A stretch of DNA of 64,000 nucleotides from Gordonia bronchialis DSM 43247 (lineage in GTDB: Bacteria; Actinomycetota; Actinomycetes; Mycobacteriales; Mycobacteriaceae): NCBI RefSeq assembly GCF_000024785.1, contig NC_013441.1, positions 1,550,001-1,614,000 of the forward strand, read 5' to 3'. A program made the position numbers and the translations under genes. The notes below the pieces were generated by a model, which saw only the letters and a program-made list of their open reading frames with translations, did not search any database and was not told the origin of the DNA. This document shows positions 5,466-55,102 of the stretch, piece by piece. Each line of letters begins with the position of its first letter. The stretch's first letter is position 1.

Positions 5466-5594
5466 AGTGCGTGCCAGATTACCGAGCGGTGCGGTGGTGT
5501 AACCAACCGGAGTCGGGGTGAGCAGATCTTTACGTGCGGCGACGGTGGTGTGGACAGTGCGGATAGCGGTCCTGGTAAGTGCAGTTTTCGGCGG

Positions 5595-6590: not shown

Positions 6591-7216
6591 GCGACGACCT
6601 TTCTCGCCAGGGCCAGGTCGGTCTCGAAGTCGCTCTCCGGATCGTCTATCAGCCGTCGAGTGGCCTTCGCGTGGGCACGCACGGGCGGATCCGGATGGCG
6701 CAGCGCGGTTGTCACGGCCGACGACGCGGCCTCGCCGAGCGTCACGAACGCGCGGCTGAGGCTGCGCTGCACCTCGGTGTCACCGCGGCCGAACTCGCGA
6801 GCCAGCGACGAGGCCAGTGCGCGATGCTCGTCTGCCGGGGCGAGGACCACCGCCGCACGCCACGCTGCCCGGGCGACCTCGGTGTCGGTGTCGTGCAGCA
6901 GGTCGTCGGTGATGGCCGGCCAGGCTGCCCGGTCACCGATCTTGGACAGCGTGTGCAGTGCCTGACTGCGTGCTTGCGCCCGCGTAGCGGACAGTTCGAC
7001 GACGAGCCGCGGCACCGCCACCTCCGCGGGTAGCCGCGTCAACGCCCAGGTCAGCATGTCGCGGACAAAGAAGTCCGGTTCGACGGCGCAGCGCTGCACG
7101 AGCGGGTCGACGAAGCCGGCCTCGGGTGCGGTACCCGCGGCCAATGCCGCCCGAAGCCTTGTCGAGGCATCCGGGGCGCTGAGCGCGCGCGTGAGTGTGG
7201 TTGTCGTCTGGGTCAT
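6584..7216 (-). CDS. HEAT-repeat protein coupled to the MerR-HEAT regulator
   Basis: The 210-residue protein is almost entirely HEAT-like helical pairs: DASTRLRAALAAG, EPDFFVRDMLTWALTRLP, RAQARSQALHTLSKIGD, DTEVARAAWRAAVVLAP, DTEVQRSLSRAFVTLGE and DPPVRAHAKATRRLI. No signal peptide or catalytic motif is visible. The ATG at 7216 is preceded by a strong AAGGAGG ribosome site, which decides against the in-frame ATG at 7234. The gene is the first of a two-gene operon with the MerR-HEAT regulator. The shared repeat type suggests that the two proteins bind each other or the same partner; this is inference. Upstream lies a repeat-filled gap. Confidence 0.82.
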   Translation of the reverse strand: MTQTTTTLTRALSAPDASTRLRAALAAGTAPEAGFVDPLVQRCAVEPDFFVRDMLTWALTRLPAEVAVPRLVVELSATRAQARSQALHTLSKIGDRAAWPAITDDLLHDTDTEVARAAWRAAVVLAPADEHRALASSLAREFGRGDTEVQRSLSRAFVTLGEAASSAVTTALRHPDPPVRAHAKATRRLIDDPESDFETDLALARKVVAC

Positions 7217-7297
7217 GGGGACCACCTCCTTCACCCGTCACTCAACAGCTTGACACCGTGTGAAGGTCAAGTGGTCGCGGACGTCCTCGGGTCACCT

Positions 7298-7416
7298 TGG
7301 TTTCGACGCGCGGCGGTCTCGCAAGCTCGCCCGACGCGGCTCAGCCAGCTGAGGGGCGCGGCTGGACCAGCTGCTGGGGGTACGGCCGGACCAGCTGCTG
7401 GGGGTACGGCTGAACC
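7298..7416. repeat. REP-like core plus tandem array (third copy)
   Basis: A core at 7298-7348 runs from TGGTTTCGACGCGCGG to GGCTCAGCCAG and closely matches the reverse complement of the core at 2482-2533. It continues into an array: one GGCTCAGCCAGCTG unit at 7338, then two 24-bp units (7360-7383 and 7384-7407, core GGACCAGCTGCTGGGGGTAC) and a partial third. It ends about 20 bp from the GH65 stop codon. The same core-plus-array layout occurs at 2430-2752. Confidence 0.8.
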
Positions 7417-7435
7417 TGATGGTGGGCCCCCGCCC

Positions 7436-9796
7436 TCAGATCTCCCGGCGATAGGGCTCACAACTCGGCGGCGCCTTGGGCGGTTCGCGGTAGGTGAACT
7501 CGGGGATGTCCATCGACACCGGCGCCGATTCCAGCGTGAACTTCTCGCCGTGGTGTGCCAGATCGATCGGCGGGCCCGACAGCAGCCGGTAGGTGGCGTG
7601 GTTCTGGTCGATGGCCACCACGATCTTGGAGTCGCGCACGATCATGCGGAACGACAGATAGGTCAGCCGGCTCGGTAGGCGCGGTGCGAAGGTGATGTTG
7701 CCGCCGAAGTCGCGCATCCCGCCGAAGCCGGCCACACAGTCGGTCCAGGCGCCGGCCAGGGCCGCGATGTGTAGACCGCTGCTGACGTTGTTGTGCAGGT
7801 CGTGCAGATCGGTGAACACCGACTCGGCCAGCAGATCGTAGGCCAGATCGAGGTATCCAACCTCGGCTGCCGTCACCGCTTCGCAGCACGCCGAGAGAGA
7901 CGAGTCGCGCACGGTCAGCGGGTAGTAGTAGTCGAAGTTGCGCAGTTTCTGCTCGGGCGTGAACGACGACCCGAACAGGTAGGTGGCGAACACGAGGTCG
8001 GCCTGCTTGACCACCTGCTTGCGGTAGAGGTCGTAGTAAGGATAGTTGAGCAGCAGCGGATAGCGGCCTACCGACGATTCGAAGTCCCAGGCACCCAGCA
8101 GCGTGAACGATTCGCACTGCTGATGCACGCCGAGCGCTTCGTCGTAGGGAATCGTCATGTCGTCGGCACACGATTCCCAATGTGCCGCTTCGGCATTGGT
8201 GACACCGAACTGTTCGGCCAGATCGGGTCGACGATGAACCGCGGCCACCGCGTCGCGCAGATTCTGTTGCGCGGCGAGGTTGGTGAAGGTGTTGTTGTTG
8301 ACCACCGCGGTGTACTCGTCGGGTCCGGTGACACCGTCGATGCGGAACCGTCCGTTGGCGTCGTGATGGCCGAGCCCGGCGAACAGGCGCGCGGTCTCCA
8401 CGAGAAGTTCGACGCCGCACTCGGTTTCGAACTGTTCGTCGTTGGTGGCGCGCAGGTAGCGGGCGGTGGCGTTGGCGATGTCGGCAGAGACGTGTACACC
8501 CGCGGTGCCCGCCGGCCAGTAGCCCGAACATTCGTCGCCGTTGATGGAGCGCCACGGGAACATGGCGCCGCGCTGGCCGAGTTCGGCGGCGCGGCTCTTG
8601 GCCTTGTCCATCGTGGCGTGGCGCCACCGCAGCTCCTCGCCGGCCGCCGCGGGCACCGTGTAGGTGAGCATCGGCAGGATGAAACTCTCGGTGTCCCAGA
8701 AGGTGTGGCCGTCGTAGCCGGGGCCGGTGAGACCCTTGGCGGGGATGGCGCGGGACTGACCGCGCGCTCCGGCCTGCAGGACGTGGAACAGTGCGAATCG
8801 GACGGCCTGCTGCAGTTCGGGGTCGCCGTCGAGTTCCACGTCGGCGTCGCGCCAGAAATCCTCGAGGTAGCGGACCTGGTCGGCCTTCAGGGAATCCCAG
8901 CCGGTTTCCATGGCCATGGCCAGTGCCGCGTCGACCTGGGCGCGCAGCGCGGGCACCGAGCGCCGGGCCGACCAACCGTAGCCGATGTACTTGGTCAGCG
9001 TGATCGACTTGCCTTGCGGCACATTGGCGGCGATGGTCAGCCGCGCGAGGTCGGAGTCGGCGCGGATGAACGTGTCGGCCTTGTCCGGGAAGTAGATCTC
9101 GTGATCCATGCCGGCGGCGATGTGCAGCCCGGACTTCTTGGTGTGGTGCACCAGCATGCCCCAGTAGTTGCGGCAGGCGGCGAGATCGGAGACCAGCGGC
9201 TGATCCAGGGCGGCAGCCAGCCGGGGGTCGTTCCCGGGTGCGGGGACCGGCTCGTTGGCGAGCAGATCCGACTGCAGCACCAGCTTCATGTCGTCGTCGA
9301 TGGGTTCCACTTCGTAACGGATCGCGGCGATGGTGCGTTTGGTGAACGACACCAGCCGTTCGGATTTGATCCGCACGGTGCGCCCCGTCGGCGAGGTCCA
9401 CAGCGTGTGCCTGCGCAGCGTTCCGGTCCGGAAGTCCAGCACCCGCTCGTGTTCTTCGGTGCGTCCATAGCGCAGGTCCATCGGCTCGTCCTCGACGAGG
9501 AGCCGGATGATCTTGCCGTCGGTGACGTTCACCACGGTCTGACTCGATTCCGGGTAGCCGTAACCACTTTCGGCGTACGGCAGGTCGCGCAACTCGTAGA
9601 AGCCGTTCAGGTAGGTGCCCGGATGATCGACCGGTTCACCCTCCTCGAAGGTGCCGCGTAAGCCGATGTGTCCGTTGGAGAGTGCGAAGAGTGTCTCGGT
9701 GCGGCCGAGCATGTCCAAATCGACGCCGCCGCTCCACTTCAGCTGCCACGGGTTGATCTCGAACCCGAATCCGCGGTCGTGCTCGGTGGCGCTCAT
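7436..9796 (-). CDS. GH65 disaccharide phosphorylase (trehalose/maltose/kojibiose type)
   Basis: This 786-residue protein has the three-part layout of glycoside hydrolase family 65: an N-terminal beta-sandwich (about residues 10-270), an (alpha/alpha)6 catalytic barrel (about 320-690) and a C-terminal beta domain. GHTFWDTESF lies at about 363-372, and the general-acid glutamate is in TGPDEYT (E494). Most members phosphorolyse an alpha-linked disaccharide with inversion, releasing beta-glucose-1-phosphate. The next gene (4-bp overlap) is a beta-phosphoglucomutase-like HAD enzyme, which would convert that product to glucose-6-phosphate. The exact disaccharide cannot be read from the sequence. 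The pair resembles Rv3401/Rv3400 of M. tuberculosis. Confidence 0.9.
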   Translation of the reverse strand: MSATEHDRGFGFEINPWQLKWSGGVDLDMLGRTETLFALSNGHIGLRGTFEEGEPVDHPGTYLNGFYELRDLPYAESGYGYPESSQTVVNVTDGKIIRLLVEDEPMDLRYGRTEEHERVLDFRTGTLRRHTLWTSPTGRTVRIKSERLVSFTKRTIAAIRYEVEPIDDDMKLVLQSDLLANEPVPAPGNDPRLAAALDQPLVSDLAACRNYWGMLVHHTKKSGLHIAAGMDHEIYFPDKADTFIRADSDLARLTIAANVPQGKSITLTKYIGYGWSARRSVPALRAQVDAALAMAMETGWDSLKADQVRYLEDFWRDADVELDGDPELQQAVRFALFHVLQAGARGQSRAIPAKGLTGPGYDGHTFWDTESFILPMLTYTVPAAAGEELRWRHATMDKAKSRAAELGQRGAMFPWRSINGDECSGYWPAGTAGVHVSADIANATARYLRATNDEQFETECGVELLVETARLFAGLGHHDANGRFRIDGVTGPDEYTAVVNNNTFTNLAAQQNLRDAVAAVHRRPDLAEQFGVTNAEAAHWESCADDMTIPYDEALGVHQQCESFTLLGAWDFESSVGRYPLLLNYPYYDLYRKQVVKQADLVFATYLFGSSFTPEQKLRNFDYYYPLTVRDSSLSACCEAVTAAEVGYLDLAYDLLAESVFTDLHDLHNNVSSGLHIAALAGAWTDCVAGFGGMRDFGGNITFAPRLPSRLTYLSFRMIVRDSKIVVAIDQNHATYRLLSGPPIDLAHHGEKFTLESAPVSMDIPEFTYREPPKAPPSCEPYRREI

Positions 9797-10524
9797 GCGG
9801 GCAGCAATTCGTCGAGATCGCCGACGACGACGTCCGCGCCCGCCGCGCGCATGGCCTCGGTCTGCGCGCCGTCGTGGCGGTCGATGGCCACCACATACCC
9901 GAACTTGCCTGCGGCGGCGGCCTGCACGCCGGAGATGGCGTCCTCGACGACGGCGGCCTGTGCCGGCGCCACACCCATCAGTTCGGCGCCGAGCAGAAAC
10001 GAATCCGGGGCGGGTTTGCCCGCGAGTCCTTTGGCGACGATGTCGAGACCGTCGACCCTGGCCTCCACGAACTGTGTCAGGTCGGCTGCATCCAGCACGG
10101 CTGCTCCATTCTTCGACGACGTCACCACCGCGATCCGCAGACCGGCATCGCGGGCGGCGTTGAGATAACGCACAGAACCGGGGTAGGCGCTCACCCCGCC
10201 ATCGTGCAAGGCGGTCAGGAACATCTCGTTCTTACCCGTTCCGATCGCGGTGACCGTCTCGTCGGACACGTCGTCGATCCCGCGTGCGGCGAGAAAGGCA
10301 CGCACCCCGGCCTCGCGCGGCCGACCGTCGACGTAGTCGAGGTAGTCCTGATCGGTGAACTCGACGAACCCCGGACCGTCCGTACCGCCGGCACGGTCGG
10401 CGAGGAAGGCGTCGAAGGCCGTCTTCCACGCCTTGCGGTGCAGCACCGCCGTCGAGGTGAGGACGCCGTCGAGGTCGAACAGCGCCACGGTGATCGCATC
10501 TGGCAAACCCAACACGAGTGGCAA
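9793..10524 (-). CDS. Beta-phosphoglucomutase-like HAD enzyme
   Basis: The 243-residue HAD-superfamily protein has motif I FDLDGVLTST (nucleophile D17, acid/base D19), a helical cap (about residues 25-100), motif II VVTSSKNG, a GKPAPDSF lysine motif and motif III VVEDAISGVQAA. This is the pattern of beta-phosphoglucomutases. It overlaps the GH65 phosphorylase start by 4 bp and lies upstream of it in the same operon. Together they suggest phosphorolysis of a disaccharide followed by isomerisation of beta-glucose-1-phosphate. Phosphatase activity instead of mutase activity cannot be excluded. Confidence 0.87.
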   Translation of the reverse strand: MPLVLGLPDAITVALFDLDGVLTSTAVLHRKAWKTAFDAFLADRAGGTDGPGFVEFTDQDYLDYVDGRPREAGVRAFLAARGIDDVSDETVTAIGTGKNEMFLTALHDGGVSAYPGSVRYLNAARDAGLRIAVVTSSKNGAAVLDAADLTQFVEARVDGLDIVAKGLAGKPAPDSFLLGAELMGVAPAQAAVVEDAISGVQAAAAGKFGYVVAIDRHDGAQTEAMRAAGADVVVGDLDELLPA

Positions 10525-10591
10525 CGCTACCTGTCCGGAGCCGGGATGGCGCGCTACCGGTGGGCACCTGCGTCGCCGGGGCGGTGCGCGG

Positions 10592-11287
10592 TCAGGCCGT
10601 GGACGCCGCGGGGGCGTCGTCGTCCCAGAATCCGATGGATTCCAGCTGGGCGATCAGACGGTCGCGGGCATCGTCGAAGCGGGCGTGGATCTCGGCGCGG
10701 ATCCCCTTGGCGTCACCGGCGCGCAGTTGGTCGATCAGCTTGCGGTGACTCGTGACGGCCTCGCGGCCCCAGGTCTCGTCGTTGGCGTACAGCTCGAAGG
10801 GGTTGTTCTTGCTGGCCGCGTACTGGAACCAGGCGAGCTTCTTGCTGTTGGCCATCAGATGCACCTTGCGGTGGAAGGCGAACTCGCCGGCCAGCACGAG
10901 ATCGGCGCGGTGCGCGTCGACGGCGGCTTCGAGGTCGTCGACGATCGAGGCGAGTTCGGCGAGGTGCCGATCACGGTCGGGTGCGTCGATCGCGTGGGTG
11001 GCCAGCCGCGCCGACAACTCGGCCTGCATCCAGAAGATGTCCACGATGTCGCCGCGGTCGAGCGGTTCGACGATGAAACCGCGATGTGGGGAGGAGCGCA
11101 CCAGGCCCTCACCGCGCAGCGTGACGAGCGCCTCGCGGACGGGGGTGACACTGCAGCCGAGCGTCGAGGCTGTCTCGTCGAGCCGCACGAAGTCTCCGGG
11201 CCGCAGTTGCCCGGTCATGATGCGGTTGCGTAGATGGTCGGCGACCTCATCGGTCAGCTGGGTCCGCCGCAATGCTGCCGAGCTCAT
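10592..11287 (-). CDS. GntR/FadR-family transcriptional regulator
   Basis: The 231-residue protein has an N-terminal winged helix (TDEVADHLRNRIMTGQLRPG, then ASTLGCSVTPVREALVTLRGEGLV) and an FCD-type all-helical ligand domain (about residues 90-220), with conserved His and Asp residues such as EFAFHRKVH and TSHRKLID that usually bind a metal. Its ATG overlaps the stop of the upstream DUF2236 gene (ATGA), so it is the last gene of that operon. mce operons in mycobacteria are often controlled by regulators of this family (Mce1R, Mce2R), so control of the adjacent mce/DUF2236 cluster is a fair inference. Confidence 0.9.
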   Translation of the reverse strand: MSSAALRRTQLTDEVADHLRNRIMTGQLRPGDFVRLDETASTLGCSVTPVREALVTLRGEGLVRSSPHRGFIVEPLDRGDIVDIFWMQAELSARLATHAIDAPDRDRHLAELASIVDDLEAAVDAHRADLVLAGEFAFHRKVHLMANSKKLAWFQYAASKNNPFELYANDETWGREAVTSHRKLIDQLRAGDAKGIRAEIHARFDDARDRLIAQLESIGFWDDDAPAASTA

Positions 11288-13110: not shown

Positions 13111-13843
13111 CTAGAGGGTTTGGACGTCGTCGACGAGCCAGCGCCCGTCGATGTTCTTGAGTTTCACCAGCATTCGGTAGGCCTGGGTCTTGCCGGTCGG
13201 TGCCACCGCATTGCGTGCCTGCGGGTCGACGAAGAGCATCACGGCGGCATCGCTGCCGTTGATCTGCTCGGCGGCGGCGTGTGAGACGGTGGCCGTGGCC
13301 TCCCCCTTGCCGTCGGTGACGATCTGGGTCAGGTCGGTCACCATCTGGCTGTACTTGGCGGCGAAGGCCGGCGTCGACATCGCCGCGATGGCTTCCCGGT
13401 TCTTGTTCAGATCGCGGTAGTCGAAGCTGGACAGTTTGATCGCGTAGTCCTTGGCGACGCCGATGGCCTGCGCCGAGGACTGTGCATCCGGGACGGTGGT
13501 GGCGTCGTCGGTGACGTAGTGATAGCCGAAGAACGCTGTCGCGCCGATCAATCCGGCCAGCAGCAGACCCGCGACGAACGGCGAGCAACCGCCGCGGACG
13601 AGGGATCCTGCGGGTGACGACGGTGGTGTCCTCGACCGTGTCGGGGGTGTCGTCGTCGCTGTCCGTTGCGGCTGCCGACGCCGAACCGGTGTCCTTGTCG
13701 GGCGAGGTTCGCGAGGTACGCCGTCGTGCCACCGGAGCGGTACGCGCCGGTGAACGTTTGCCGCGCGGCGCCGACGCGGACGTGTCGCCCGTCTCGGCGG
13801 TCTCGGTCGTCTTCTCGGTGAGAGAGGTGGTGTCAGTTGCCAT
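13111..13843 (-). pseudogene. Mce-associated (Mas) membrane protein, apparent frameshift
   Basis: The start (ATG 13843, MATDTTSLTEKTTETAE) and the end lie in different frames. The N-terminal frame runs through an acidic, Ser/Thr/Arg-rich tail to TTVVTRRIPRPRRLL. The transmembrane helix FVAGLLLAGLIGATAFFGY and the Mas domain ending in RWLVDDVQTL are in another frame. Removing one base near 13578-13590 joins them as RRLLPFVAGLLLAG. Mas proteins stabilise Mce complexes at the membrane. The start overlaps the mceF stop by 11 bp. Either a real +1 mutation or a sequencing or assembly error explains the break. Confidence 0.85.
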
Positions 13844-14396
13844 GTCGTGCCCTTTCCAGAAGTTCTTGCCACCACTGCAGGAGTTCGACGCCGTGGGGGA
13901 TGAGCAGCGGGTCGGTGACGGCGGGTGGTCCGGAGACTCCGCCGGGGGTGGTCATGTTGGTGGTTCCCAGGCCGTTGGGCCGGGGCGCGTTGATCGCGCC
14001 GCGCTGTCCGTACCCGTTGCCGGGTGGGCAGTATCGGGTCAGGTTGGGCGCGGTCGGCGTGAGATTGCCGATCTCACTGCGTGGTTCGTCGTAGAACAGG
14101 CACACCGGGCCCTGCGTCCCGATGAGTGCGAAATCGGCGCGCCCGTTCTTGACGATGGACCGCAGATCGCGCAGTCCCTGCGGGATGGTGTCCAGCCCGG
14201 TGGCCAGGGATTGCTTGCGGTCGCTGATGATCGGCTCGACGGTGACCAGGTTGGCCAGCACGCCACCGAAGGTCCCGCGGTAGCGGTCGAACAGTTCGCG
14301 GGTGTGGTTCAGACTCTGCGGTGCCTTGTCGAGTAGGTAGACGAAGGTCGGCTGGTTGGCGTCGAGCTGATCGGTGAACGTTGCGACCGAACGCAT
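13833..14396 (-). pseudogene. mceF: mceF, C-terminal fragment (cut by the IS element)
   Basis: This 187-codon fragment contains the helical and C-terminal parts of MceF: RSVATFTDQLDANQPTFVYL, LNHTRELFDRYRGTFGGVL, ADFALIGTQGPVCLFYDEPR and the tail ELLQWWQELLERARHGN. It begins exactly at the CAT target duplication (14394-14396), which reads as ATG on this strand. It is in frame with the N-terminal fragment at 15759-16445. Removing the IS element and one CAT copy restores a continuous 414-residue MceF. The fragment could be translated from that ATG, but without the MCE domain and membrane anchor it is unlikely to work. Confidence 0.93.
14394..14396. repeat. 3-bp target-site duplication, left copy (CAT)
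   Basis: CAT directly precedes the left inverted repeat of the IS3-family element and is repeated directly after the right inverted repeat at 15762-15764. A 3-bp duplication is typical of IS3-family insertion. Confidence 0.85.
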
Positions 14397-14448
14397 TGAA
14401 CCGCCCCGGGTTTGTCGGAGGCTCTCGAACCTGTGAAGGATGGAGAGC

Positions 14449-14766
14449 ATGGCAGCACCACGCAAGTACAGCGAGGAACTCAAGGAGCGGGCTACCCGGA
14501 TGGCGGTGGAAGCACGACGGGACCCGGAGTCCTCGCGCGGCGCGGTCAAGCGGATTGCCGATCAGCTCGGGATGCATCCCGAGGCGTTACGCAACTGGGT
14601 TCGTCAGGCTGAGATCGACGGCGGTGTACGGGCGGGCACCACCACCGAGGATGCCGACCGGATCGCGCAGTTGGAGCGGGAGAACCGCGAGCTGCGGCGG
14701 GCGAACACGATCTTGAAGCAGGCGTCGGCTTTTTTCGCGGCGGAGATCGACCGCCCACAGCGTTGA
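14449..14766 (+). CDS. IS3-family transposase OrfA
   Basis: This roughly 105-residue basic protein has the IS3 OrfA helix-turn-helix (KYSEELKERATRMAVEARRD, then RIADQLGMHPEALRNWVRQAE) followed by a leucine-zipper-like coiled coil (IAQLERENRELRRANTILKQA), used for multimerisation and inverted-repeat binding. ATG 14449 has an AAGGA site about 8 bp upstream; ATG 14440 is an in-frame alternative. A slippery heptamer T TTT TTC at 14730-14736 is exactly in phase for a -1 shift into orfB. Its stop TGA overlaps the TTG that begins the annotated orfB frame. Confidence 0.93.
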   Translation: MAAPRKYSEELKERATRMAVEARRDPESSRGAVKRIADQLGMHPEALRNWVRQAEIDGGVRAGTTTEDADRIAQLERENRELRRANTILKQASAFFAAEIDRPQR

Positions 14767-15731
14767 TCGTGGAGTTCGTCGCCGCTTATCGCGATGAACA
14801 CGGAGTCGATCCGATCTGCGCGGCCCTGCGCGACACGGCCGCCCAGATCGCTCCGTCCACGGTGCGAGCCCACCTGAGCCCACAGAAGACCGAGGCGCCA
14901 CGAGCAGTTCGTGACCGCGAGATGCTCGGTGAGATCCGCACCGTGCACGCCGACAATCTCGGTGTCTACGGTGCTCGCAAAGTACACGCCGAACTATGCA
15001 GAAAGGGGTTCGGTGTGGCTCGTTGCACCGTCGAACGATTGATGAAAGCCGATGGGCTGCAGGGGATACCGCGGTTGAAGGCACGTAAGACCACTCGCAG
15101 TGAGGGAGCCGAGACGCCACAGCCGGCTGATCGGGTCCAACGGCAGTTCACCGCCCAAGCGCCGAATACCTTGTGGGTCGCCGACCTGACCTACATCCGC
15201 ACCCACTCCGGCTGGGTATATGCGGCATTCATCCTCGATGTGTTCTCCCGCATGGTCGTCGGCTGGCAGGTGTCCACGACCATGCATACCGGCCTCGCGC
15301 TCGATGCCCTGGACATGGGGTTGTGGGCGCGTTCGCGGGCCGGCCAGGATGTGGCCGGGCTGATCCACCACTCCGACCGCGGAGTGCAGTATCGAGCCAT
15401 TCGTTACACCGAACGTCTCGCCGAGGCGGATGCGGTGACTTCTGTTGGCTCCAAAGGTGATTCGTACGATAACGCGATGGCCGAGGCATTCAACTCGCTG
15501 TTCAAAGCCGAGTGCATTCGTAACCCAGTGATGCGCCCGCGTGGTGGTTGGGGCGGTGTCGGCGAGGTCGAGATCGCGGTCGCCGAATACATCGAATGGT
15601 TCAACCACCGACGCCTGCACGGCGAGATCGGACACGTCCCGCCCGTCGAGTACGAGGCCGCCTACTGGGCGACCCACACGGTCACCAGCTACCGTGAGAA
15701 CCCGGTCCCAGCAATCGCTGGAACCAACTAA
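14763..15731 (+). CDS. IS3-family transposase OrfB (DDE integrase)
   Basis: The roughly 322-residue catalytic subunit has an HTH-like N-terminal part (ADNLGVYGARKVHAEL, VERLMKADGLQG) and the DDE integrase core: LWVADLTYIRTHSGW (first Asp), HHSDRGVQY (second Asp) and the NAMAEAFNSLFKAE segment (Glu). The TTG at 14763 overlaps the orfA stop. The frame is open back to the slippery site, so an OrfAB fusion made by -1 frameshifting is the likely active transposase. It ends 30 bp from the right inverted-repeat terminus. Confidence 0.94.
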   Translation: MIVEFVAAYRDEHGVDPICAALRDTAAQIAPSTVRAHLSPQKTEAPRAVRDREMLGEIRTVHADNLGVYGARKVHAELCRKGFGVARCTVERLMKADGLQGIPRLKARKTTRSEGAETPQPADRVQRQFTAQAPNTLWVADLTYIRTHSGWVYAAFILDVFSRMVVGWQVSTTMHTGLALDALDMGLWARSRAGQDVAGLIHHSDRGVQYRAIRYTERLAEADAVTSVGSKGDSYDNAMAEAFNSLFKAECIRNPVMRPRGGWGGVGEVEIAVAEYIEWFNHRRLHGEIGHVPPVEYEAAYWATHTVTSYRENPVPAIAGTN

Positions 15732-15758
15732 CCGAGCCTCCAGCAAACCCGGGGCGAT

Positions 15759-16445
15759 TCACATCCCGGATTCGAAGGCCGCGGTGTTGTCGCTCATCGC
15801 GCCCAGGACGTCGAGTAGGTCGTCGAACAGTCCGCGCAGGATGGGTGCGTTGCGGTTGACCAGGCTCGCCAGTGCCGTGCCGTTGGAGACGAGTTTGCTC
15901 AGCGCCTGATCGTCGTGGTCGAAGGCGTTGGAGAACTCGGTCCCGAAGGTGGCGAGTTGACCGGTACCGATGCTGCGCAAGACCGACGCCGCGTCGGTGA
16001 TGATGGCGTCCATCTGCTTGGGCTGGCGATCGGCCGGCGCCGCGATGGTGTCGCCGGACTGTAGGTAGGGCGGATCGTCGTTGCTCGGGATGATGTCGAC
16101 GCTCTGGATGCCGGCCATCGACGCCATGGTCACCTGCATGAAGGAGTCCGCCGGGATGCGGGTGTCGCCGCGCACCACGAGTTCGATGTCGGCGGCGTCG
16201 CCGAGGGTCACCGACTTCACGGTCCCGATGTCCACTCCGCGCAGGGTCACGCCGGTGCCCTCGGTGAGGCCGAAGGCATCGGTCATGGTGGCGTGCAGGG
16301 TGAGTTTGTCGCCGAAGCCCTCCGGACCGGCGATGAAGTTGATCCCGTAGGGGATGATCACCGCGGACAGCACCAGGAAGATGACGAATTGCAGTGCGCC
16401 GGTGCGGGGTGTGGGCAGACGAAGCCGTTTGGCTGCGGGACTCAT
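15759..16445 (-). pseudogene. mceF: mceF, N-terminal fragment (cut by the IS element)
   Basis: ATG 16445 overlaps the mceE stop (ATGA). The 228 residues comprise a membrane anchor (LQFVIFLVLSAVIIPYGINF, about 19-38), the MCE beta-barrel domain (about 40-120: GPEGFGDKLTLHATM, EGTGVTLRGVDIGTVKSV, SFMQVTMASMAGIQSVDIIPS) and the start of the helical needle region. After the target-duplication ATG codon the reading frame meets a TGA (15759-15761) that belongs to the right end of the IS. MceF is one of six subunits forming the lipid-conducting needle of an Mce importer; losing its C-terminal half should stop assembly. Confidence 0.94.
15762..15764. repeat. 3-bp target-site duplication, right copy (CAT)
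   Basis: This is the second copy of the CAT found at 14394-14396, directly after the right end of the IS element. On the minus strand it is the last sense codon (ATG) of the N-terminal mceF fragment. Confidence 0.85.
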
Positions 16446-17568
16446 CGTGGTGCTCCTGGCTGCTGTCGTGGCCGTTCACGTTGCTGCGGGGGCGCCTTGG
16501 GCCGGCCCAGGCCGCCGGTGAGGACGTCGCGCAACTCGTTGGGGGTGAGCAGCGGTTGTCCGGCCAGCAGCAGACCGCCGGTGAGGATCTTGTCGATGCC
16601 GCCGGGAATGTCGAGCGCGCCGTCGAAGACCAGATAGTCCCCCCGGATGGACCGGTTGAAGTTCCGCATGAAGGAGTTCATGTGGGTCAGGGTGTCGCCG
16701 ACGGTCCCGTTGAACGCGGCCAGCGACTTCACCAGGGTGTTGGCGTCGGTCACCATCGAGTTCAGGGTCGCCTGCCGGCCCTTCACCACGGCGTCGACGT
16801 TGACCGCGAGGGTGGTGGTCTGACGCATCAGTGCGGCGATCTGATCCCGTTGCGAGGACAGGACTCCCACCGCATCGGGCACCTGTTGCAGGAATTCGTC
16901 GACCACCTGCCGCTGACCGACGAGAAGATCGCTGACATCGGCCGCGGCGGCGATCGCCGAGTTGAAGTCCTCGGTGTAGACCGACGACCGCGACAGCAGC
17001 CGGTTGAGGGTGTCGATGAGGTCGCCGACCTTGTCCGAGCGGTTCGCGAAGGCGGTGTTGAGGCTGCTCATCACCGATTGCAGCTGGCTGACGCCGCTGC
17101 CGCCGAGGATGTTGCCCAGCGCGGCCAGCGTGCTCTCGATCTGCGGTCCCACCGAGGTCTGCTTCAGCGCGATGTGGGAGCCGTCGGTGAGTGTGCCCTC
17201 CGGGTTCTTCGGTGCGCTCAGCCGGATGAACGGGTACCCAGCGCCGACGGCAATTCCACTGTGGCGGTGGCGTTCGCGGGCAGCGTGGTGCCGTCGGAGA
17301 GGGTCATGGTGATCTCGGCGTGCTGGCCGGTCAGCCCGATGTCGGTGACACGTCCGACGATCTGCTGGCCATGCCGGACGTCGGCGCCCGACACCACGCC
17401 GTCGGCGGTGATGAGTTCGGCGGTCACCTCGAAGGAGTCACCGCTGCCTGCGCCGAGCGGAAGGTCCTGCAGGCCAACCGAACACGCGGACAGTGAGACG
17501 GCGGCAGTCGCCGCCAGCATCGTGGCCCGCAGGCGGGTACGCCGACCGGGATCGGATGGACGTCTCAT
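16442..17568 (-). pseudogene. mceE: mceE lipoprotein subunit, apparent frameshift
   Basis: ATG 17568 overlaps the mceD stop. The protein starts with a lipoprotein signal (LAATAAVSLSAC, lipidated Cys about residue 29) and the MCE domain (SFEVTAELITADGVVSGADV, GRVTDIGLTGQHAEITM). The first frame stops soon after VELPSALG, while the rest (YPFIRLSAPKNPEGTLTDG, then the helical region and a C-terminus rich in Pro, Gln and Arg) is in another frame. Adding one base near 17232-17241 joins them; the repaired gene is 375 codons plus stop. MceE is the lipid-anchored subunit of the Mce complex. The stop overlaps mceF by ATGA. Confidence 0.88.
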
Positions 17569-18755
17569 CAGTTCCCGCCTCCCGGGGTGGTGGTGACGGC
17601 CGGCGGACGCTGGGGCAGCGCGCCACCGGTGATCGCGGAGACGATGCCCAGCGGATCGGAACTGCTGATCGGGAAGGCGATCGGGTTGGTCAGACCGGCA
17701 CCGATGCAGATCGGCATCGGGAACTGGTCGCACAGCGGTTTGAGTGTCTTGAACTGCGTCAGGGTGGTGGAGATGTTCAGCCGGATGCGGCCACGACGAT
17801 CGGGGCCGATGGTGCTCGACAGGTTCTGCAACATCAGCGGAGCGAGATCCATGAACTCGGCGAGCCCGGCCTTGTTGCGGACCAGGGTGTCGCCGAGTGC
17901 CCGCAGGTTCTCGGCGACCACGCCGACATCGTTGCCGTGTGCCATCACGAAGCCGTTGATCTGGTCGAAGACCACCTTCAGGTCGTTGATCGGTCCGGTG
18001 ATGTCCTGGTCGGCGGTCGACCACTGCGCCGACAGCACGCTCATCGACCGCACCAGTCCGTCGAGCGAGACCTGCTTGGTGCGGAAGGTCGTCATGAGCT
18101 GATTGAGGCTGTCGATGAGGTCCTGCAGGTCCTCGGTCCGTGCGCCGAAGACGCCGGACGCCGACGCCAAACCGGCCATCGTCGTACCGAATTCGGTTCC
18201 GCGGCCGTCCCACGCCTTGGCGGTCGAGGCGAGCAGTGTGCCGATGCTGTTGGGGTCGTCGGGGTTTCGGGCGGAGTCGGCCGGTCCCATGATCTTGGTG
18301 AGGGTGCCGATGCTGTCGAGGAGCTGATCGAAGCTGATCGGGGAGTGGGTGCGTTCCAGCGGGATGGTGGCGCCGTCGGCGAACTTCGGTCCGCCGGTGT
18401 AGGCCGGACCCAGTTCGAGGTGACGGTCACTGATCACCGACGGATTGAGCACGTAGGCGGACACATTCGCCGGGAGGTCGATCGACGCCGGCATGCTCAC
18501 GGTGACCTTGACACGGTCACCGGCGGGTTCGACGGAATCGATCCGGCCCACCGGGACACCGAGCACGGTGACCTTGGAACCCTCGTAGAGGCCGTTGACG
18601 AAGGCGAACTCGGCGTGCACGGTCCGGGTGTCGGACTCGGCGCCGAAGGCGTACCACAGGCCGGCGACGATCGCGCCGACGAGCAGCAGTGCCATGAAGA
18701 TCCTGCCGCCGTAGCGCTTTCGCTTACGGACTTCGCGAACCTGACGGAAGGTCAT
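17568..18755 (-). CDS. mceD: Mce family protein MceD
   Basis: This 395-residue subunit has an N-terminal basic stretch (RQVREVRKRKRYGGRI), one membrane anchor (FMALLLVGAIVAGLWYAFG, about 20-38), an MCE domain (TVHAEFAFVNGLYEGSKV, VLGVPVGRIDSVEPAGDRV, DRHLELGPAY) and long helical repeats to about residue 330. The Pro-rich C-terminus is typical. ATG 18755 overlaps the mceC stop (TGATG), and its own stop overlaps the mceE start in the same way, so translation is coupled. It appears intact although neighbouring subunits are broken. Confidence 0.93.
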   Translation of the reverse strand: MTFRQVREVRKRKRYGGRIFMALLLVGAIVAGLWYAFGAESDTRTVHAEFAFVNGLYEGSKVTVLGVPVGRIDSVEPAGDRVKVTVSMPASIDLPANVSAYVLNPSVISDRHLELGPAYTGGPKFADGATIPLERTHSPISFDQLLDSIGTLTKIMGPADSARNPDDPNSIGTLLASTAKAWDGRGTEFGTTMAGLASASGVFGARTEDLQDLIDSLNQLMTTFRTKQVSLDGLVRSMSVLSAQWSTADQDITGPINDLKVVFDQINGFVMAHGNDVGVVAENLRALGDTLVRNKAGLAEFMDLAPLMLQNLSSTIGPDRRGRIRLNISTTLTQFKTLKPLCDQFPMPICIGAGLTNPIAFPISSSDPLGIVSAITGGALPQRPPAVTTTPGGGN

Positions 18756-19798
18756 CAGCGGCACCCCTGCATCACGCCGAGCAGGCACAGCATGTTGTCG
18801 GGGATCACCGCGCTCGGGGAGACCACGTCGGCCCAGTTGCCGTTGCCGGTGGCATCGGTGATGGTCCGCATCGCCGGTGGCAGTTGCTCGAGGATGCCGT
18901 CGATGGTGGTGACGTTCGACTTCAGCGTGGTGGTGACCGACGCGATGTTGTTCACGAGATCTCCCATCGGTATCTGCGGGAAGGTCGTCGCCATCTGGTC
19001 CAGCACGATGCGCAGGTTGTCCACGAGGCGGGTCAGGACCATCCGGCGGACAGCGAGTGTCTGGACGATGATCTGGGTGCTGGAAAACGCGCTCGAGACC
19101 GAATCGCTTTGTTGCGCCGTCACTTCGGCGAGCTTCTTGGAGACGACGAGGAGTTGGTCGAGCTGGGCGCCGGTCTCGGTGATCGCGGCGGTGGCCCCGG
19201 CCGCGCCGGCCATCGAGGCGTCGAGGGTGGTGCCGTTGGGCATGATCTGGTTCATCGTCGCGATCATGGCGCGCACCGCACCGGAGTCGATCTCCCGGGA
19301 GGTGTGCACCGCGGCGCTGGAGATGTCGTCGAGGTTGTAGGGAACCGTGGTGCGCGACAACGGAATCGTGTTGCCGGGCCCCACCTCGCCGCGGCCGGCC
19401 GGGATGATCTCCAGGTAGCGCTTGCCCAGGACGGTGCGCGGGCGCACGGTGGCCCTGGTCTGGTTGCCCAGCGGCAGGTCGTTGTCGAGGCGGAATCCCA
19501 CGCGTACCCGGTCACCGGCGAGGTCGATGGCCTCGATCCGCCCGGCCGGCACACCGGCGACGAGCACCGGGTCGGCGGTGGTGAGGCCGGAGGCGTTGGC
19601 GAGTTCGGCGGTGAACGGCGAGGTGCGGGCGTGATAGTTGATCTGCGGCACGCCGATCGCGATGAGCATGAGGGTGAGCAGGGTGATGATTCCGGCGGTT
19701 CCCAGCACGGCCGCCGACGCACCCTGCGCACGCTTGTCGGCCTTGAAGACGAACTCCAAGATCCCGACGAAGACGTCGATGAGTCTGACCAGAAACAC
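18755..19798 (-). CDS. mceC: Mce family protein MceC
   Basis: The 347-residue subunit begins at GTG 19798 (MFLVRLIDVFVGILEFVF). It has a membrane helix (TAGIITLLTLMLIAIGV, about 33-50) and an MCE domain (PFTAELANASGLTTADPV, VAGVPAGRIEAIDLAGDRV, GKRYLEIIPAGRGE). A helical region follows, and the C-terminal segment has a cysteine pair (MLCLLGVMQGCR). It lies 55 bp after mceB, the only real gap in the operon, and its stop overlaps mceD. It is intact. With the other subunits it would form the periplasm-spanning ring and needle for lipid or sterol uptake. Confidence 0.92.
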   Translation of the reverse strand: MFLVRLIDVFVGILEFVFKADKRAQGASAAVLGTAGIITLLTLMLIAIGVPQINYHARTSPFTAELANASGLTTADPVLVAGVPAGRIEAIDLAGDRVRVGFRLDNDLPLGNQTRATVRPRTVLGKRYLEIIPAGRGEVGPGNTIPLSRTTVPYNLDDISSAAVHTSREIDSGAVRAMIATMNQIMPNGTTLDASMAGAAGATAAITETGAQLDQLLVVSKKLAEVTAQQSDSVSSAFSSTQIIVQTLAVRRMVLTRLVDNLRIVLDQMATTFPQIPMGDLVNNIASVTTTLKSNVTTIDGILEQLPPAMRTITDATGNGNWADVVSPSAVIPDNMLCLLGVMQGCR

Positions 19799-19853: not shown

Positions 19854-20873
19854 TCACCTGCAGACCGGGGAGTGCAGCGGGCCGAAGATGTTGGCCTCGA
19901 GGTTGAACGCCTTGAGCGTGAAGTTGCACAGGTAGAGCATCATGAAGCCGCCGTAGCGACCGCTCTGGTTGATCTTGCCGGCCAGGACGGGGAACTGCCG
20001 CAGGAACTCGGTGAACGCCGGTGTGTTGGGAATCCATGCGGCGGTGACACTTTCGAGTCCGGTGAGGGCTTGCTGGAAGTTCCCGCCCGCCGAGGTCATC
20101 ATCTGCGCCAGCGCGGAGACGGCGCGGTCGCCACTGGAGAGCAGCGCGGCGAGTTGACCGTTGTCGCCGACCACTGCCGAGGTGAGCGAGCTCAGCCCCT
20201 TGAACAGTTCGGTCAGCTGTGGGTTGTGGGCGTCCATCGTGGACATCAGCTCGTTCAGGTTGGTGATGAGCCGGGCGAAGATCGCGCTGTTGGCGGACAG
20301 GTTGGAGCCCATCGTGCCGATCTGGCGCAGCAGCAACTGAACCGATCCGTCGCGGCCTTCGAAGGTGTCGACGAAGCCGCGGGCGAGTTCGTTGACCTGT
20401 TTGGGGTCGAGTGCCGAGAACAGTGGCTGGAAGCCGTTCATCAGGGCGGTGAGGTTCACCGGGGGCGATGTCGCGTCCACCGGGATGGTGGTGCCGTTGC
20501 GTCCGGGCTGTCCCGGCCGGCCCTCCGACAGCGCGATGTAGCGGGCACCGAGCATGTCGCCGTACCGGATGGCCGCGTGGATCTGTTGGGGGAGTTCGCG
20601 ATCCCGCTGGATCTCGACCTCGACGTCGGCCAGTGAGGTGCCGTCGGCCTGCGGTGCGAACCGCACCGAGGAGACCCGTCCGATCCGGACGCCGGACATC
20701 GTCACCGGGTTGCCCTCCACGAGACCTTCGGCGTCGGTGAAGGCGATGTGATAGGTCGTCGTCGGCCCGGACACCGGAACCCGCAGGGTGTTGCTCACCA
20801 GCACGGCCGCGATGATCCCGACGATCACGAAAGATGCCGATTTGAGGACGGTCTTGAACGACAGGGTGGTCAT
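19854..20873 (-). CDS. mceB: Mce family protein MceB
   Basis: The 339-residue subunit has an anchor (SASFVIVGIIAAVLVSNTL, about 12-30) and an MCE domain (TTYHIAFTDAEGLVEGNPV, MSGVRIGRVSSVRF, GARYIALSEGR). A long helical segment follows, and then a C-terminus with a conserved cysteine pair (YLCNFTLKAFNLEA ... LHSPVCR). ATG 20873 overlaps the mceA stop (ATGA). The frame is intact. The final residues fit the B-type paralogues, which end shortly after the second cysteine. Confidence 0.92.
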   Translation of the reverse strand: MTTLSFKTVLKSASFVIVGIIAAVLVSNTLRVPVSGPTTTYHIAFTDAEGLVEGNPVTMSGVRIGRVSSVRFAPQADGTSLADVEVEIQRDRELPQQIHAAIRYGDMLGARYIALSEGRPGQPGRNGTTIPVDATSPPVNLTALMNGFQPLFSALDPKQVNELARGFVDTFEGRDGSVQLLLRQIGTMGSNLSANSAIFARLITNLNELMSTMDAHNPQLTELFKGLSSLTSAVVGDNGQLAALLSSGDRAVSALAQMMTSAGGNFQQALTGLESVTAAWIPNTPAFTEFLRQFPVLAGKINQSGRYGGFMMLYLCNFTLKAFNLEANIFGPLHSPVCR

Positions 20874-22179
20874 CGCACCTGCACCTCGTTTCCGCGGAGC
20901 ATCGGGCCCAGCATCAGGGTGGTGGCCGGGTTCGGGGTGTCCGAGGTGCCGGGCCGGCCGCGCAGTTGGGCTTCGAGGTTGCTCAGGGTGCCCGCCTCCG
21001 CCGCACCGTCGATGACGGTCGGGCCGGTGAAACCTGAAGGGGTGAAACCGGGTCGGGGCTGGCGGGGGGAGAGCAGACGCGGGTTGCCGGTGCCGGGTTG
21101 CCGGACCGGTCCGGTGCCGATGGGGCTACCGGTGCCGAAGCACTGGCTGCCACGTATGGTCCCGTAGGTGGGGCAGTCGGCGGCGGTGTAGTGCATCGGC
21201 TGGGAGAAGGTCGGCACCGCGGTGATGTTGAACCGGCCGCTGGCGAACAGGATGGTGCCCGCCGCACCGAATTTGCTTGCCTCGGTGAGGTGTCGGTGAC
21301 CCCCGAGGGGTTGTCGGCGACGGTCGATGCGATGGTGGCGGTGGAATCGACGATGGTGATGAGGTTGCGTCGCTGCTGGGCCAGGAAGGGGGCGACGGAC
21401 CCGACGAACCCGGACGCGGAGGCCAGGAAGGCATCCAGGTTCTCCTGGTGCTCGACGATTCCCCGCGAGATCGACGTGGTGGATCGCAGGGTGTCGGTGA
21501 TGGCCGGCGTGGCGCGCCGCAGGCTTTCCATGACGGCACGGAATCGTGGTGTGGCGTCGATGAATCGGTTCATCGTGGACTCCAGTTCACGGGAGGTCTG
21601 CCACCAGTCGTCGATCATGATGCCCAGGTCGCCGCCGCTGGTGCCGATGGCTGCGGACACGGCGGCGAGTGCGATGTTCATCTTCTCCGGCTGGACCTCG
21701 GCGAGGACGTCGGAGAGCTTGGTGAAGATGTCGTAGAGGTTGATCGCCTCGGGTCCGTCGTCGATGCGTATCTCGTCGCCGTCGGACAACGATTGCGACC
21801 GGCTCGCGCCGGGGGTGTCGACAAGCTGAACGTAGATGTCGCCGAAGAACGTTCGGGGCAGGACCCGCATCAGCACGGTGTTCGGGATGGACGAGAGGTA
21901 GTTGTCGTCGATGGTGAGACTGACCACCGAGGACGTGGTCCCGGCGTCGATGGAGGCGATCTCACCGACCTTGACCCCGTGGTAGCGAACGGGCGCACCG
22001 GTGGTGATGAGCCCGGCTTCCACCGGTACCTCGGCGTGGATCTCGGGATTCGTCTCGAGTACCCCCGTACTGCGGGCGACCATCCAGATGGCGAAGGCGA
22101 CGATCAGTGCGGTGGCGATCACCGCACGCAGGATGTAGGAGGTGCGCGACACCGGGTTGCCGTGGAGCATGACGGACAT
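20870..22179 (-). pseudogene. mceA: mceA, apparent frameshift in the C-terminal half
   Basis: ATG 22179 lies 1 bp after the yrbEB stop. The first frame encodes an anchor (LRAVIATALIVAFAIWMVA, about 18-36), the MCE domain (EVPVEAGLITTGAPVRYHG, VLPRTFFGDIYVQLVD) and the helical region to ADNPSGVTDT. The rest continues in another frame as LTEASKFGAAGTILFASGRF and SQPMHYTAADCPTYGTIRG and ends at 20870. Adding one C near 21287-21292 joins them into 436 residues. The first frame alone would end in a long Pro/Arg/Ser-rich out-of-frame tail. A one-base deletion or a sequence error is the cause. Confidence 0.89.
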
Positions 22180-22180
22180 G

Positions 22181-23041
22181 TCAGATTCCCATTCCCGGGA
22201 TCTGCGGGATCAGACCCCACAACCCGAAGGTGAAGATGACGTCGAAGATGCCGATCGCGAGGATGGACGTACGCAGCGCGCGGCCCGCCGCCTGACCGAC
22301 ACCTTCGGGGCCACCGGAGGCGAAATAGCCGTAGCTGCAATGCACCAGCGCGACGATGGCGGCGAAGACGATGGCCTTGGTCGCCGAGTAGAGCAGGTCG
22401 GTCGGAGTGAGGGCGAGGTGGAAGAAGTAGTCGTAGGTGCCCGACGATTCGCCGTTGTACCAGACCACCACCAGCCGGGTCGCGATGTAGCTGGCCAGCA
22501 GCCCCACCATGTAGATCGGCAGGATGCAGACCATCGCCGCGATCATGCGCGTCGTCGCGAGGAAGGGGATGGAGCGGATGGCCATCGAGTCCAGGGCCGC
22601 GATCTCGTCGGAGATCCGCATCGCGCCGACCTGTGCGGTGAATCCGGTTCCGACCTTGGCGGCCAACGCGATTCCGACAACCACCGGCGCCAGTTCGCGG
22701 CTGTTGGCGATCGCCGAGAGCATGCCGGACAACGAGGTCATGCCGACCAGTTGCAGGCCGCGGTAGGTCTCCACGCCGAGCATCATCGCCGCGGCCAGCG
22801 ACATGGCGAGCACGATGCCCAGGGTGCCGCCGCCGGACAGCAGCGATTTGGAGCCGAAGGTCACCTCGGCGATCTGGTTGAGCACGTGCTTGCGATAGTG
22901 CACCACGGTGAACGGGATCGCGATGATGGCCCGGGCGATAAAGGTGACGAACTCGCCGATCCGGACGATACCGCCGGTGAGTTGTTGTGCGCGAGCCGAA
23001 TAGCGGCGCTGTACGCGCACCGAGAAGTCTGCGGACACCAT
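22181..23041 (-). CDS. yrbEB: YrbE-type Mce permease B
   Basis: The 286-residue integral membrane protein belongs to the MlaE/YrbE permease family. It has five or six predicted helices, for example FVTFIARAIIAIPFTVVHY, TLGIVLAMSLAAAMMLGV, and the C-terminal SILAIGIFDVIFTFGLWGL. The conserved cytoplasmic loop AQVGAMRISDEIAALDSMAI (about 145-165) contains the coupling EQ-like motif, here ISDEIAALD. Two YrbE permeases with an MceG-type ATPase encoded elsewhere drive Mce uptake. ATG 23041 overlaps the yrbEA stop. It is intact. Confidence 0.94.
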   Translation of the reverse strand: MVSADFSVRVQRRYSARAQQLTGGIVRIGEFVTFIARAIIAIPFTVVHYRKHVLNQIAEVTFGSKSLLSGGGTLGIVLAMSLAAAMMLGVETYRGLQLVGMTSLSGMLSAIANSRELAPVVVGIALAAKVGTGFTAQVGAMRISDEIAALDSMAIRSIPFLATTRMIAAMVCILPIYMVGLLASYIATRLVVVWYNGESSGTYDYFFHLALTPTDLLYSATKAIVFAAIVALVHCSYGYFASGGPEGVGQAAGRALRTSILAIGIFDVIFTFGLWGLIPQIPGMGI

Positions 23042-23849
23042 CAGTACGCCCCTACGGCCGGCACGATCACGGTGTAGAGCTGCGAGAGGATCGTGTTGAA
23101 GATGAAGACCAGCGCGAAGGCGATCACGACGGCCTCGTTGACCGCGTCGGCGACGCCACGCGGATCGCCGCGGGCGTGTAATCCCTTGAAGCAGGCCACG
23201 ATCGTGGAGATCAGAGCAAAGATCGTCGCCTTGATCAGGGCCATCACGAAGTCCGAGAACCGGCCGTACTGACTGAAGGTCGCCATGAACGCGCCGGCCG
23301 GCAGATGCTGGACGTAGATGTGGTAGGCGTAGCAGGCCCCCACGCCGGTCACCGTGATGAGCGAGCACAGCACCAGGGAGACGACGATGGCGGCGAGGAT
23401 GCGCGGGGCCACCAGACGCTCGATCACGTTGAGCCCCATGACTTCCATCGCGTCGATCTCTTCGCGGATCTTGCGGGAGCCGAGGTCGGTGCAGATGGCC
23501 GATCCGGCGACACCGGCCATCATCAGCGCGCACACCAATGCCGAGGCCTGCCCGACGATGACGAAGGCGACCACCGCGCCGGAGTAGCCACCGGCTCCGA
23601 TACGTCCGGCGAGTTCACCGACGGAGACCGCGATGAACACGCCGACCGGAACATCAGCAGCAACGACCGGCCGGTGCTGACCCGCCCGATGAACACCGTC
23701 TGGTTCAGGGTCTCGGCGATCGAGAGGCGACGGCGGAGGGTGGCGACGACGAGAGCACCGATGGCCTGGAGCGCGAAACCAAGGGTGTGGCCGGCCTCGT
23801 TGGCCAGATCCCGGACCGGTCCCTTGGACGCGGGCAGCTCGAACGCCAT
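23041..23849 (-). pseudogene. yrbEA: yrbEA permease, apparent frameshift near the N-terminus
   Basis: ATG 23849, with an AGGGGG site upstream, starts MAFELPASKGPVRDLANE and runs through GFALQAIGALVVATLRRRL to STGRSLLLM. The remainder (VPVGVFIAVSVGELAGRIG, GYSGAVVAFVIVGQASAL, SRKIREEIDAMEVMGLNVI, then two helices to PAVGAY) is in a different frame. Adding one base near 23646-23654 gives an intact 269-residue MlaE-type permease. It is the first gene of the mce operon, so the lesion would affect the whole importer. A sequencing error cannot be ruled out from this window. Confidence 0.89.
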
Positions 23850-25945: not shown

Positions 25946-27975
<2,030 letters not shown>

Positions 27976-28012
27976 CCGGGCGCCCGAATGCGTTGACCGG
28001 GCACGGAAAAGG

Positions 28013-28055
28013 CGTTGACTGCTTGTCGGGGGCGGACGATGATGCACAGTCAACG
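28013..28055. other. Inverted repeat between rsmA and the GNAT gene
   Basis: CGTTGACTG (28013-28021) and CAGTCAACG (28047-28055) form a 9-bp perfect inverted repeat with a 25-bp loop. Additional GTTGACC and GGTCAACGG half-sites occur on either side (about 28000 and 28068). It may be an operator for the GNAT gene or a weak terminator for rsmA. There is no T-tract. Confidence 0.4.
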
Positions 28056-28088
28056 GAATCCGCCCACGGTCAACGGAGGAGGATAGCG

Positions 28089-28676: not shown

Positions 28677-28704
28677 AACGCTGAGCGGCAACGGGATTCG
28701 GACG

Positions 28705-29689: not shown

Positions 29690-29757
29690 TCTCGCTCCGT
29701 CCGAAGAGTGTAAGGCTGGAGGGGCGGGCTCGCTTCTCGGCCCGGAAAGGAGACCCG

Positions 29758-30426: not shown

Positions 30427-30444
30427 CGTCAGACGGTGTAGCGG

Positions 30445-32772: not shown

Positions 32773-32871
32773 ACCGGGACTGTATCGAGCGATCCGACAC
32801 GGTATGTGAAGTAGGGCTGTCCGGCGTCTCCGCCGGTCGGTTGTCGCCGCCTGCCGTTAAGCTGACTTCTT

Positions 32872-53125: not shown

Positions 53126-53238
53126 TGTTCTCCGCCCCTTCGCAGATCATTACCGCGTGCGAGTCTAAGCCCCGGCCGATGCCCCCGTCAGCCCGCCTCG
53201 CCGTAGGTGAGCTGGACAAACGCCCAGGATCGCCTCCC

Positions 53239-55053: not shown

Positions 55054-55102
55054 GAACCCATCGTTGCACGACCCGGGGTGCCCGCTGCGGGACGGCGTCA
55101 GC

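What the first reader, a model, noticed from the sequence alone, without database searches (positions are those of the whole stretch)
13833..16445. IS3-family element inserted precisely into mceF, restorable in frame
A complete 1365-bp element (14397-15761) with 28-bp inverted repeats and CAT duplications splits mceF. Removing the element plus one CAT rejoins 228 and 186 codons into a 414-residue MceF. The upstream fragment ends at a TGA supplied by the IS end. This is a clear, recent-looking knockout of a lipid-import operon.
Basis: seen in the sequence. Interest (0 to 1): 0.72.

Follow-up and report, generated by a model that had tools for sequence, protein, structure and literature searches.

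The report
Jumping gene in already-decaying lipid operon
In the type strain of the occasional human pathogen Gordonia bronchialis, an ordinary jumping gene has split a lipid-import gene, but several neighbouring genes of the same operon are broken too, so it is one hit on a decaying operon and not a clean switch-off.

Summary
A complete IS3-family element (14397-15761, 1365 bp, 28-nt inverted repeats matching at 25 of 28 positions, CAT on both sides) splits mceF. Of 58 other Gordonia genomes searched, 21 hold this gene; in 20 the two pieces lie end to end in one open frame, and in one they run off two contig ends. Near-identical uninterrupted proteins, very probably conspecific, exist (417 aa; 96.5% and 99.5% identical to the two pieces).

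Four more genes of the locus have frame breaks (yrbEA, mceA, mceE and the gene after mceF): 4 of 11 locus genes against 0 of 29 other genes compared in the window. The mceA break recurs, with the same shifted tail, in another database protein (398 aa, 12 cluster members), so that lesion is probably real and may be older than the insertion. The IS is the only full-length copy of its subtype found in the genome; 11 other full-length copies are 87% identical to it. Best reading: this mce operon is a multi-lesion pseudogene locus in this lineage, and the IS is one lesion, perhaps a late one. Three other mce operons look uninterrupted. Ordinary; low interest.

The parts
14397..15761 (+). Complete IS3-family insertion sequence, 1365 bp, antisense to the mce genes
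   Evidence: 28-nt terminal inverted repeats, 25/28; OrfB matches NCBIfam NF033516 transpos_IS3 at 283.9 bits against a cut-off of 160
14397..14424 (+). Left terminal inverted repeat, begins TGA
15734..15761 (+). Right terminal inverted repeat, ends TCA; read on the minus strand it gives the TGA that ends the N-terminal mceF piece
14394..14396 (.). CAT target-site duplication, left copy
15762..15764 (.). CAT target-site duplication, right copy
14440..14766 (+). orfA, 108 aa, HTH_Tnp_1
   Evidence: Pfam 51.5 bits
14763..15731 (+). orfB, rve transposase domain, in the -1 frame relative to orfA; the frame is open from 14613
   Evidence: Pfam rve 74.8 bits; frame check
14730..14736 (+). T TTT TTC in the orfA frame: candidate -1 ribosomal slippery site for an OrfAB fusion (inferred)
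   Evidence: codon listing; function not tested
15759..16445 (-). mceF N-terminal piece, 228 aa, with the MlaD/MCE domain
   Evidence: Pfam MlaD 48.5 bits
13833..14396 (-). mceF C-terminal piece, 187 aa, starting at the Met codon of the duplicated target
   Evidence: TIGR00996 at 28 bits, below its cut-off of 140.5
16442..17544 (-). mceE, frame-broken (near 17.2 kb): the two aligned parts lie in different frames
   Evidence: an uninterrupted near-identical protein P0084 exists
17568..18788 (-). mceD, one open frame
18755..19798 (-). mceC, one open frame
19854..20873 (-). mceB, one open frame
20870..22182 (-). mceA, frame-broken (near 21.3 kb)
   Evidence: intact near-identical P0204 and P0205, and P0251 with the same break
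22184..23041 (-). yrbEB, open frame (the ORF caller extends it upstream to 23533)
   Evidence: MlaE match
23044..23849 (-). yrbEA, frame-broken (near 23.7 kb)
13117..13891 (-). Gene after mceF (called mam here, a label of mine), frame-broken (near 13.6 kb); its N-terminal half aligns at only 42-44%

Best explanation
This is a degenerating (pseudogene) mce lipid-transport operon in the lineage of the G. bronchialis type strain. Small frame-changing lesions have struck yrbEA, mceA, mceE and the gene after mceF, and an IS3-family element of the kind that IS6110 exemplifies has inserted into mceF with a 3-bp target duplication. Shown: the element's anatomy, the split of mceF, frame breaks in four further genes, uninterrupted forms of mceF, mceE and mceA in near-identical database proteins. 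Inferred: the transposase is made by -1 frameshifting at T TTT TTC; transporter function is lost because a transporter of this type needs one copy each of MceA-F and YrbEA/B; the mceA break came before the IS.
For: IS anatomy. Of 58 other Gordonia genomes, 21 carry the gene and 20 have both pieces end to end in one open frame. P0002 (417 aa, 37 cluster members) is 96.5% identical to the N piece and 99.5% to the C piece; the next listed species is at most 86%. Frame breaks: 4 of 11 locus genes against 0 of 29 other genes of the window compared with the same relative under default statistics at 38% identity (hypergeometric 0.0036; with the IS 5 of 11, 0.0007). At a 55% identity cut-off 3 of 11 are flagged, 0.017. 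None of the four 61- to 71-base stretches around the breaks holds a run longer than 5 identical bases, which does not look like a pyrosequencing homopolymer error. P0251 (398 aa) aligns over all 398 residues of the broken mceA ORF at 98.5%, shifted tail included. The Mce1 complex holds single copies of YrbE1A, YrbE1B and Mce1A-F (PMC9882608, passages seen).
Against: No DNA of a second G. bronchialis strain could be examined, so conspecific status of P0002, P0084, P0204, P0205 and P0251 rests on identity alone, and I cannot say whether the P0251 lineage also carries the IS. The break in the gene after mceF rests on a weakly conserved N-terminal half (42-44%) and is not flagged at the 55% cut-off. 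No intact near-identical form was sought for yrbEA or that gene. With composition statistics off, the mceA break is not flagged, because the alignment runs on in the wrong frame. Frame changes also occur in the same locus in G. amicalis and, singly, in some other Gordonia assemblies, which may be assembly error there and so weakens the contrast. No expression data.
Confidence: 0.85

Rival explanations
1. One reading: a single recent IS insertion is the lesion that inactivated an otherwise sound operon, and the frame breaks are errors of the 2009 Sanger/454 assembly.
For: Intact target duplication and both IS frames open; the flanks are nearly identical to uninterrupted alleles; the genome was made partly by pyrosequencing (PMC3035257, passages seen).
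Against: The paper states an error rate under 1 in 100,000 and 264 pseudogenes. The breaks are not in long single-base runs. None was found in 29 other genes of the window. One break recurs in an independent cluster.
Confidence: 0.1
2. The two mceF pieces are separately expressed, functional half-proteins: the C-terminal piece starts with ATG exactly at the IS border.
For: The C piece begins at an in-frame ATG.
Against: That codon is the gene's own conserved Met duplicated with the target; the homologues seen are single proteins; the partner subunits MceA and MceE and the permease YrbEA are broken too. No ribosome-binding site was tested.
Confidence: 0.03
3. The IS, antisense to mce, acts on neighbours through an outward promoter, so its main effect is on downstream genes and not on mceF.
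For: Orientation antisense to the operon; outward promoters are recalled for IS6110, from no call.
Against: No promoter evidence was sought or seen here.
Confidence: 0.05

Closest known systems
IS6110 (IS3 family)
   Same: Two overlapping ORFs, first ORF 327 bp in both, 28-bp imperfect inverted repeats, 3-4 bp target duplication, -1 shift between the ORFs (PMC5896891, passages seen).
   Different: 1365 bp; possible slip site T TTT TTC in place of UUUUAAAG; no direct sequence comparison with IS6110 was made.
IS3-family elements of other Gordonia and of Gordonia plasmids
   Same: Same length and ends; full-length relatives at 86-87% on Gordonia plasmids and chromosomes, and 94.4% over bases 106-1365 on plasmid CP085888.1 of G. 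polyisoprenivorans.
   Different: The mceF copy is the only full-length copy of its subtype found in this genome; 11 other full-length copies (2 distinct sequences) match it at 1186 of 1365 bases.
Mce1 lipid transporter (M. smegmatis structures 8FED, 8FEE, 8FEF)
   Same: YrbEA, YrbEB, MceA-F order; intact relatives of MceF and MceA match Mce1F (48 bits) and Mce1A (41.9 bits) chains.
   Different: Distant sequence; substrate not known; several subunits broken here.
Pseudogenes of the G. bronchialis type strain
   Same: 264 pseudogenes reported for this genome.
   Different: In the passages searched the terms mce and frameshift do not occur in that paper's main text, so this locus is not discussed there under those words.

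Membership tests
IS3 family | rve-type (DDE) transposase in the second ORF | tested here: met
   Pfam rve 74.8 bits; NF033516 transpos_IS3 283.9 bits, cut-off 160
IS3 family | First ORF with helix-turn-helix, overlapping the second in the -1 frame | tested here: met
   HTH_Tnp_1 51.5 bits; frames and open overlap
IS3 family | Terminal inverted repeats with TG...CA ends | tested here: met
   25 of 28
IS3 family | Short target-site duplication of 3-4 bp | tested here: met
   CAT here; matching 3-bp flanks at 6 of the 11 other full-length copies, 5 without
IS3 family | OrfAB fusion made by programmed -1 frameshifting | not testable with these tools
   Only a candidate slip site, T TTT TTC at 14730-14736
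mce operon | Two YrbE permeases followed by six MCE-domain proteins | tested here: met
   Two MlaE and six MlaD matches at the locus, several in broken genes
mce operon | Working heteromeric transporter with intact subunits | tested here: not met
   yrbEA, mceA, mceE frame-broken and mceF split
Pseudogene | Intact orthologues in close relatives with a frame-destroying change here | tested here: met
   mceF, mceE and mceA against P0002, P0084 and P0204/P0205; yrbEA and the gene after mceF against other species only

The most novel reading that the evidence does not exclude
Loss of this mce operon is under way within G. bronchialis as a selected trait: intact and variously broken alleles coexist among strains (P0204/P0205 intact and P0251 broken for mceA), and the type strain has collected five lesions, so strains could be used to test what is gained by losing a lipid importer.
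Probability: 0.1. Interest if true: 0.45.

Novelty: new member of a known kind. Interest (0 to 1): 0.17.

Why it matters
It corrects a tidy story: a clean IS border draws the eye, but the operon around it is broken in several places, so phenotype differences of the type strain in lipid uptake should not be put down to the IS alone. It also warns that the type strain may not represent its species for this operon. Beyond that it is ordinary IS biology and gene decay.

Tried and rejected
Rejected: phase variation of mceA by a slippery tract. P0213 first looked like a third frame, but its sequence follows the intact protein and then ends in a short unrelated tail at a contig end, and no run longer than 5 bases is there. 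Rejected: a transposition of this IS from one of the 11 other full-length copies in the genome, because they differ at 179 of 1365 bases. In one search only 40 of 164 first-look candidates were scored, and only 6 per genome, so copy counts are lower bounds.

Rejected: a second IS interruption of mceF in G. rhizosphera. The gene there runs off two contig ends; the contig ends, seen, give no sign of an element, so this looks like an assembly break; not settled.

Rows dropped: 39 best ORFs were chosen, of which 10 lie in the mce locus and 2 flagged ones were dropped as antisense shadow ORFs (9874-11263 over two real genes, and 52794-55540); had and gntR, which the first had displaced, were put back, giving 29 controls, and yrbEA, dropped by the overlap filter, was put back, giving 11 locus genes. 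Window genes without a relative in the 80 kb of Gordonia sp. ABSL1-1 were not tested. One search gave the odds for 27 controls; one search replaces them.

Literature: five searches. No listed title is about this insertion; I read passages of three papers only, so I do not claim it is unreported.

Full report
Identity of the window. The window lies at C1:1550001-1614000 of a genome of 5,290,012 bases in two contigs, the larger 5,208,602. The published genome of Gordonia bronchialis 3410T (DSM 43247) is 5,290,012 bp with an 81,410-bp plasmid, made by Sanger and 454 sequencing, with 264 pseudogenes and a stated error rate under 1 in 100,000 (PMC3035257, passages seen).

Bases 14397-15761 are a 1365-bp element with 28-nt terminal inverted repeats that match at 25 of 28 positions and CAT on both sides. 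OrfA carries HTH_Tnp_1 and OrfB an rve domain; OrfB scores 283.9 bits with NCBIfam's IS3 model against a cut-off of 160. OrfB is in the -1 frame of OrfA, its frame is open from 14613, and T TTT TTC stands at 14730-14736 in the OrfA frame: a candidate slip site, not tested. The layout agrees with what PMC5896891 says of IS6110: first ORF 327 bp, 28-bp imperfect repeats, 3-4 bp duplication (passages seen).

The gene it splits. The N-terminal piece (228 aa) matches MlaD. The C-terminal piece (187 aa) has no Pfam match and a sub-threshold TIGR00996 match continuing the profile where the N piece ends, positions 8-212 and 216-289. In 59 Gordonia genomes, own included, the N piece has a strong match (E below 1e-70) in 21 others; the remaining 37 give only distant MCE paralogues (E no better than about 1e-17). 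In 20 of those 21 the C piece follows directly in the same open frame; in the 21st (G033, the contig of G. rhizosphera NBRC 16068) it lies on another contig.

Near-identical intact alleles. A relative's MceF (Gordonia sp. ABSL1-1, 424 aa) found P0002, 417 aa, 37 cluster members. It is 96.5% identical to the N piece and 99.5% to the C piece; P0008 (364 aa) gives 97.8% and 99.5%; the next proteins are at 82% (N piece) and 86% (C piece) or lower. No source names these proteins; that they come from G. bronchialis is inferred from identity. P0002 is three residues longer in the N-terminal part, so the intact protein is 417 there and not 414. MceE has an intact near-identical form, P0084, at 98% to both pieces. 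MceA has P0204 and P0205, at 95-97%.

Proteins of Gordonia sp. ABSL1-1 were aligned to the window. Under default statistics at 38% identity, 4 of 11 locus genes fall into two frames (yrbEA, mceA, mceE, and the gene after mceF) and 0 of 29 other genes do (hypergeometric 0.0036). Counting mceF, 5 of 11 are broken (0.0007). At 55% identity 3 of 11 are flagged (0.017), and with composition statistics off also 3 of 11, with mceA missed and the gene after mceF kept. The break in the gene after mceF is the weakest, for its N-terminal half aligns at 42-44%. None of the four stretches around the breaks has a single-base run above 5.

Is it sequencing error? For mceA this is unlikely. P0251 (398 aa, 12 cluster members, source lgn) aligns over all 398 residues of the window's broken mceA ORF with six differences, one of them in the shifted tail, and shows the same departure point from the intact form. 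It is nearer to the window (98.5%) than the intact P0204 and P0205 are over the first 297 residues (96.6-97.0%). If the break is shared by descent it is older than that split. Whether that lineage also carries the IS is unknown, so the order is an inference.

Other genomes as a control, in both directions. With 21 relatives' loci in hand (22 with the window; some partial at contig ends), frame changes or internal stops were flagged in G005 (G. amicalis NBRC 100051: mceB and mceE), G004 and G045 (mceD), G056 (the DUF gene, my label) and G042 (stops in the gene after mceF). So G. bronchialis has the most lesions, but it is not the only assembly with any. The filter itself missed the window's mceA break, so it can miss others.

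The element in the genome. Eleven other full-length copies (2 distinct sequences, at least 99.9% alike) each match the mceF copy at 1186 of 1365 bases, 86.9%; 6 of the 11 have matching 3-bp flanks. Short fragments up to 95% alike also occur. The nearest relatives seen are 94.4% over bases 106-1365 on a G. polyisoprenivorans plasmid and 97% over bases 1-665 in G031. The mceF copy therefore probably came from outside, or its donor was lost; it is not part of the recent spread of the other subtype.

What the damage means. [quoted passage not shown] With yrbEA, mceA, mceE and mceF damaged, a working transporter from this operon is very unlikely. The genome has 30 MlaD and 9 MlaE matches; three other clusters tile as long uninterrupted ORFs (inspection of ORFs only), so related functions may persist.

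Verdict. Observation confirmed; interpretation partly supported; ordinary IS insertion within a decaying operon.

Noticed in passing
G000:C1, 11 places such as 410661-412025 and 4991331-4992695 (L002-L012): Eleven full-length, nearly identical copies (2 distinct sequences) of an IS that is 87% identical to the one in mceF: a recent spread of a sister subtype.
   Followed up: partly
L032 (Gordonia amicalis NBRC 100051), about 4540-8962: The same operon has frame changes in mceB and mceE in this assembly, and the yrbE region also aligns in pieces; decay or draft error not decided.
   Followed up: partly
L063 and L064 (G. rhizosphera, G033): mceF runs off two contig ends close together; looks like an assembly break.
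   Followed up: partly
L119 (G045) and L120 (G004), mceD; L115 (G056), DUF gene; L129 (G042), gene after mceF: Single frame changes or stops in the same locus of other Gordonia genomes.
   Followed up: no
L132 = G000:C1:1267000-1282000: A fifth mce-like cluster with five MlaD matches, one MlaE match found, in an unusual order, and two overlapping short ORFs.
   Followed up: no
window 27970-32870: About 4.9 kb between collinear genes that has no match in the 80 kb of Gordonia sp. ABSL1-1 compared; holds a 775-aa ORF.
   Followed up: no
window 15759-16445: The N-terminal mceF piece is three residues shorter than the otherwise near-identical P0002, an in-frame difference.
   Followed up: no
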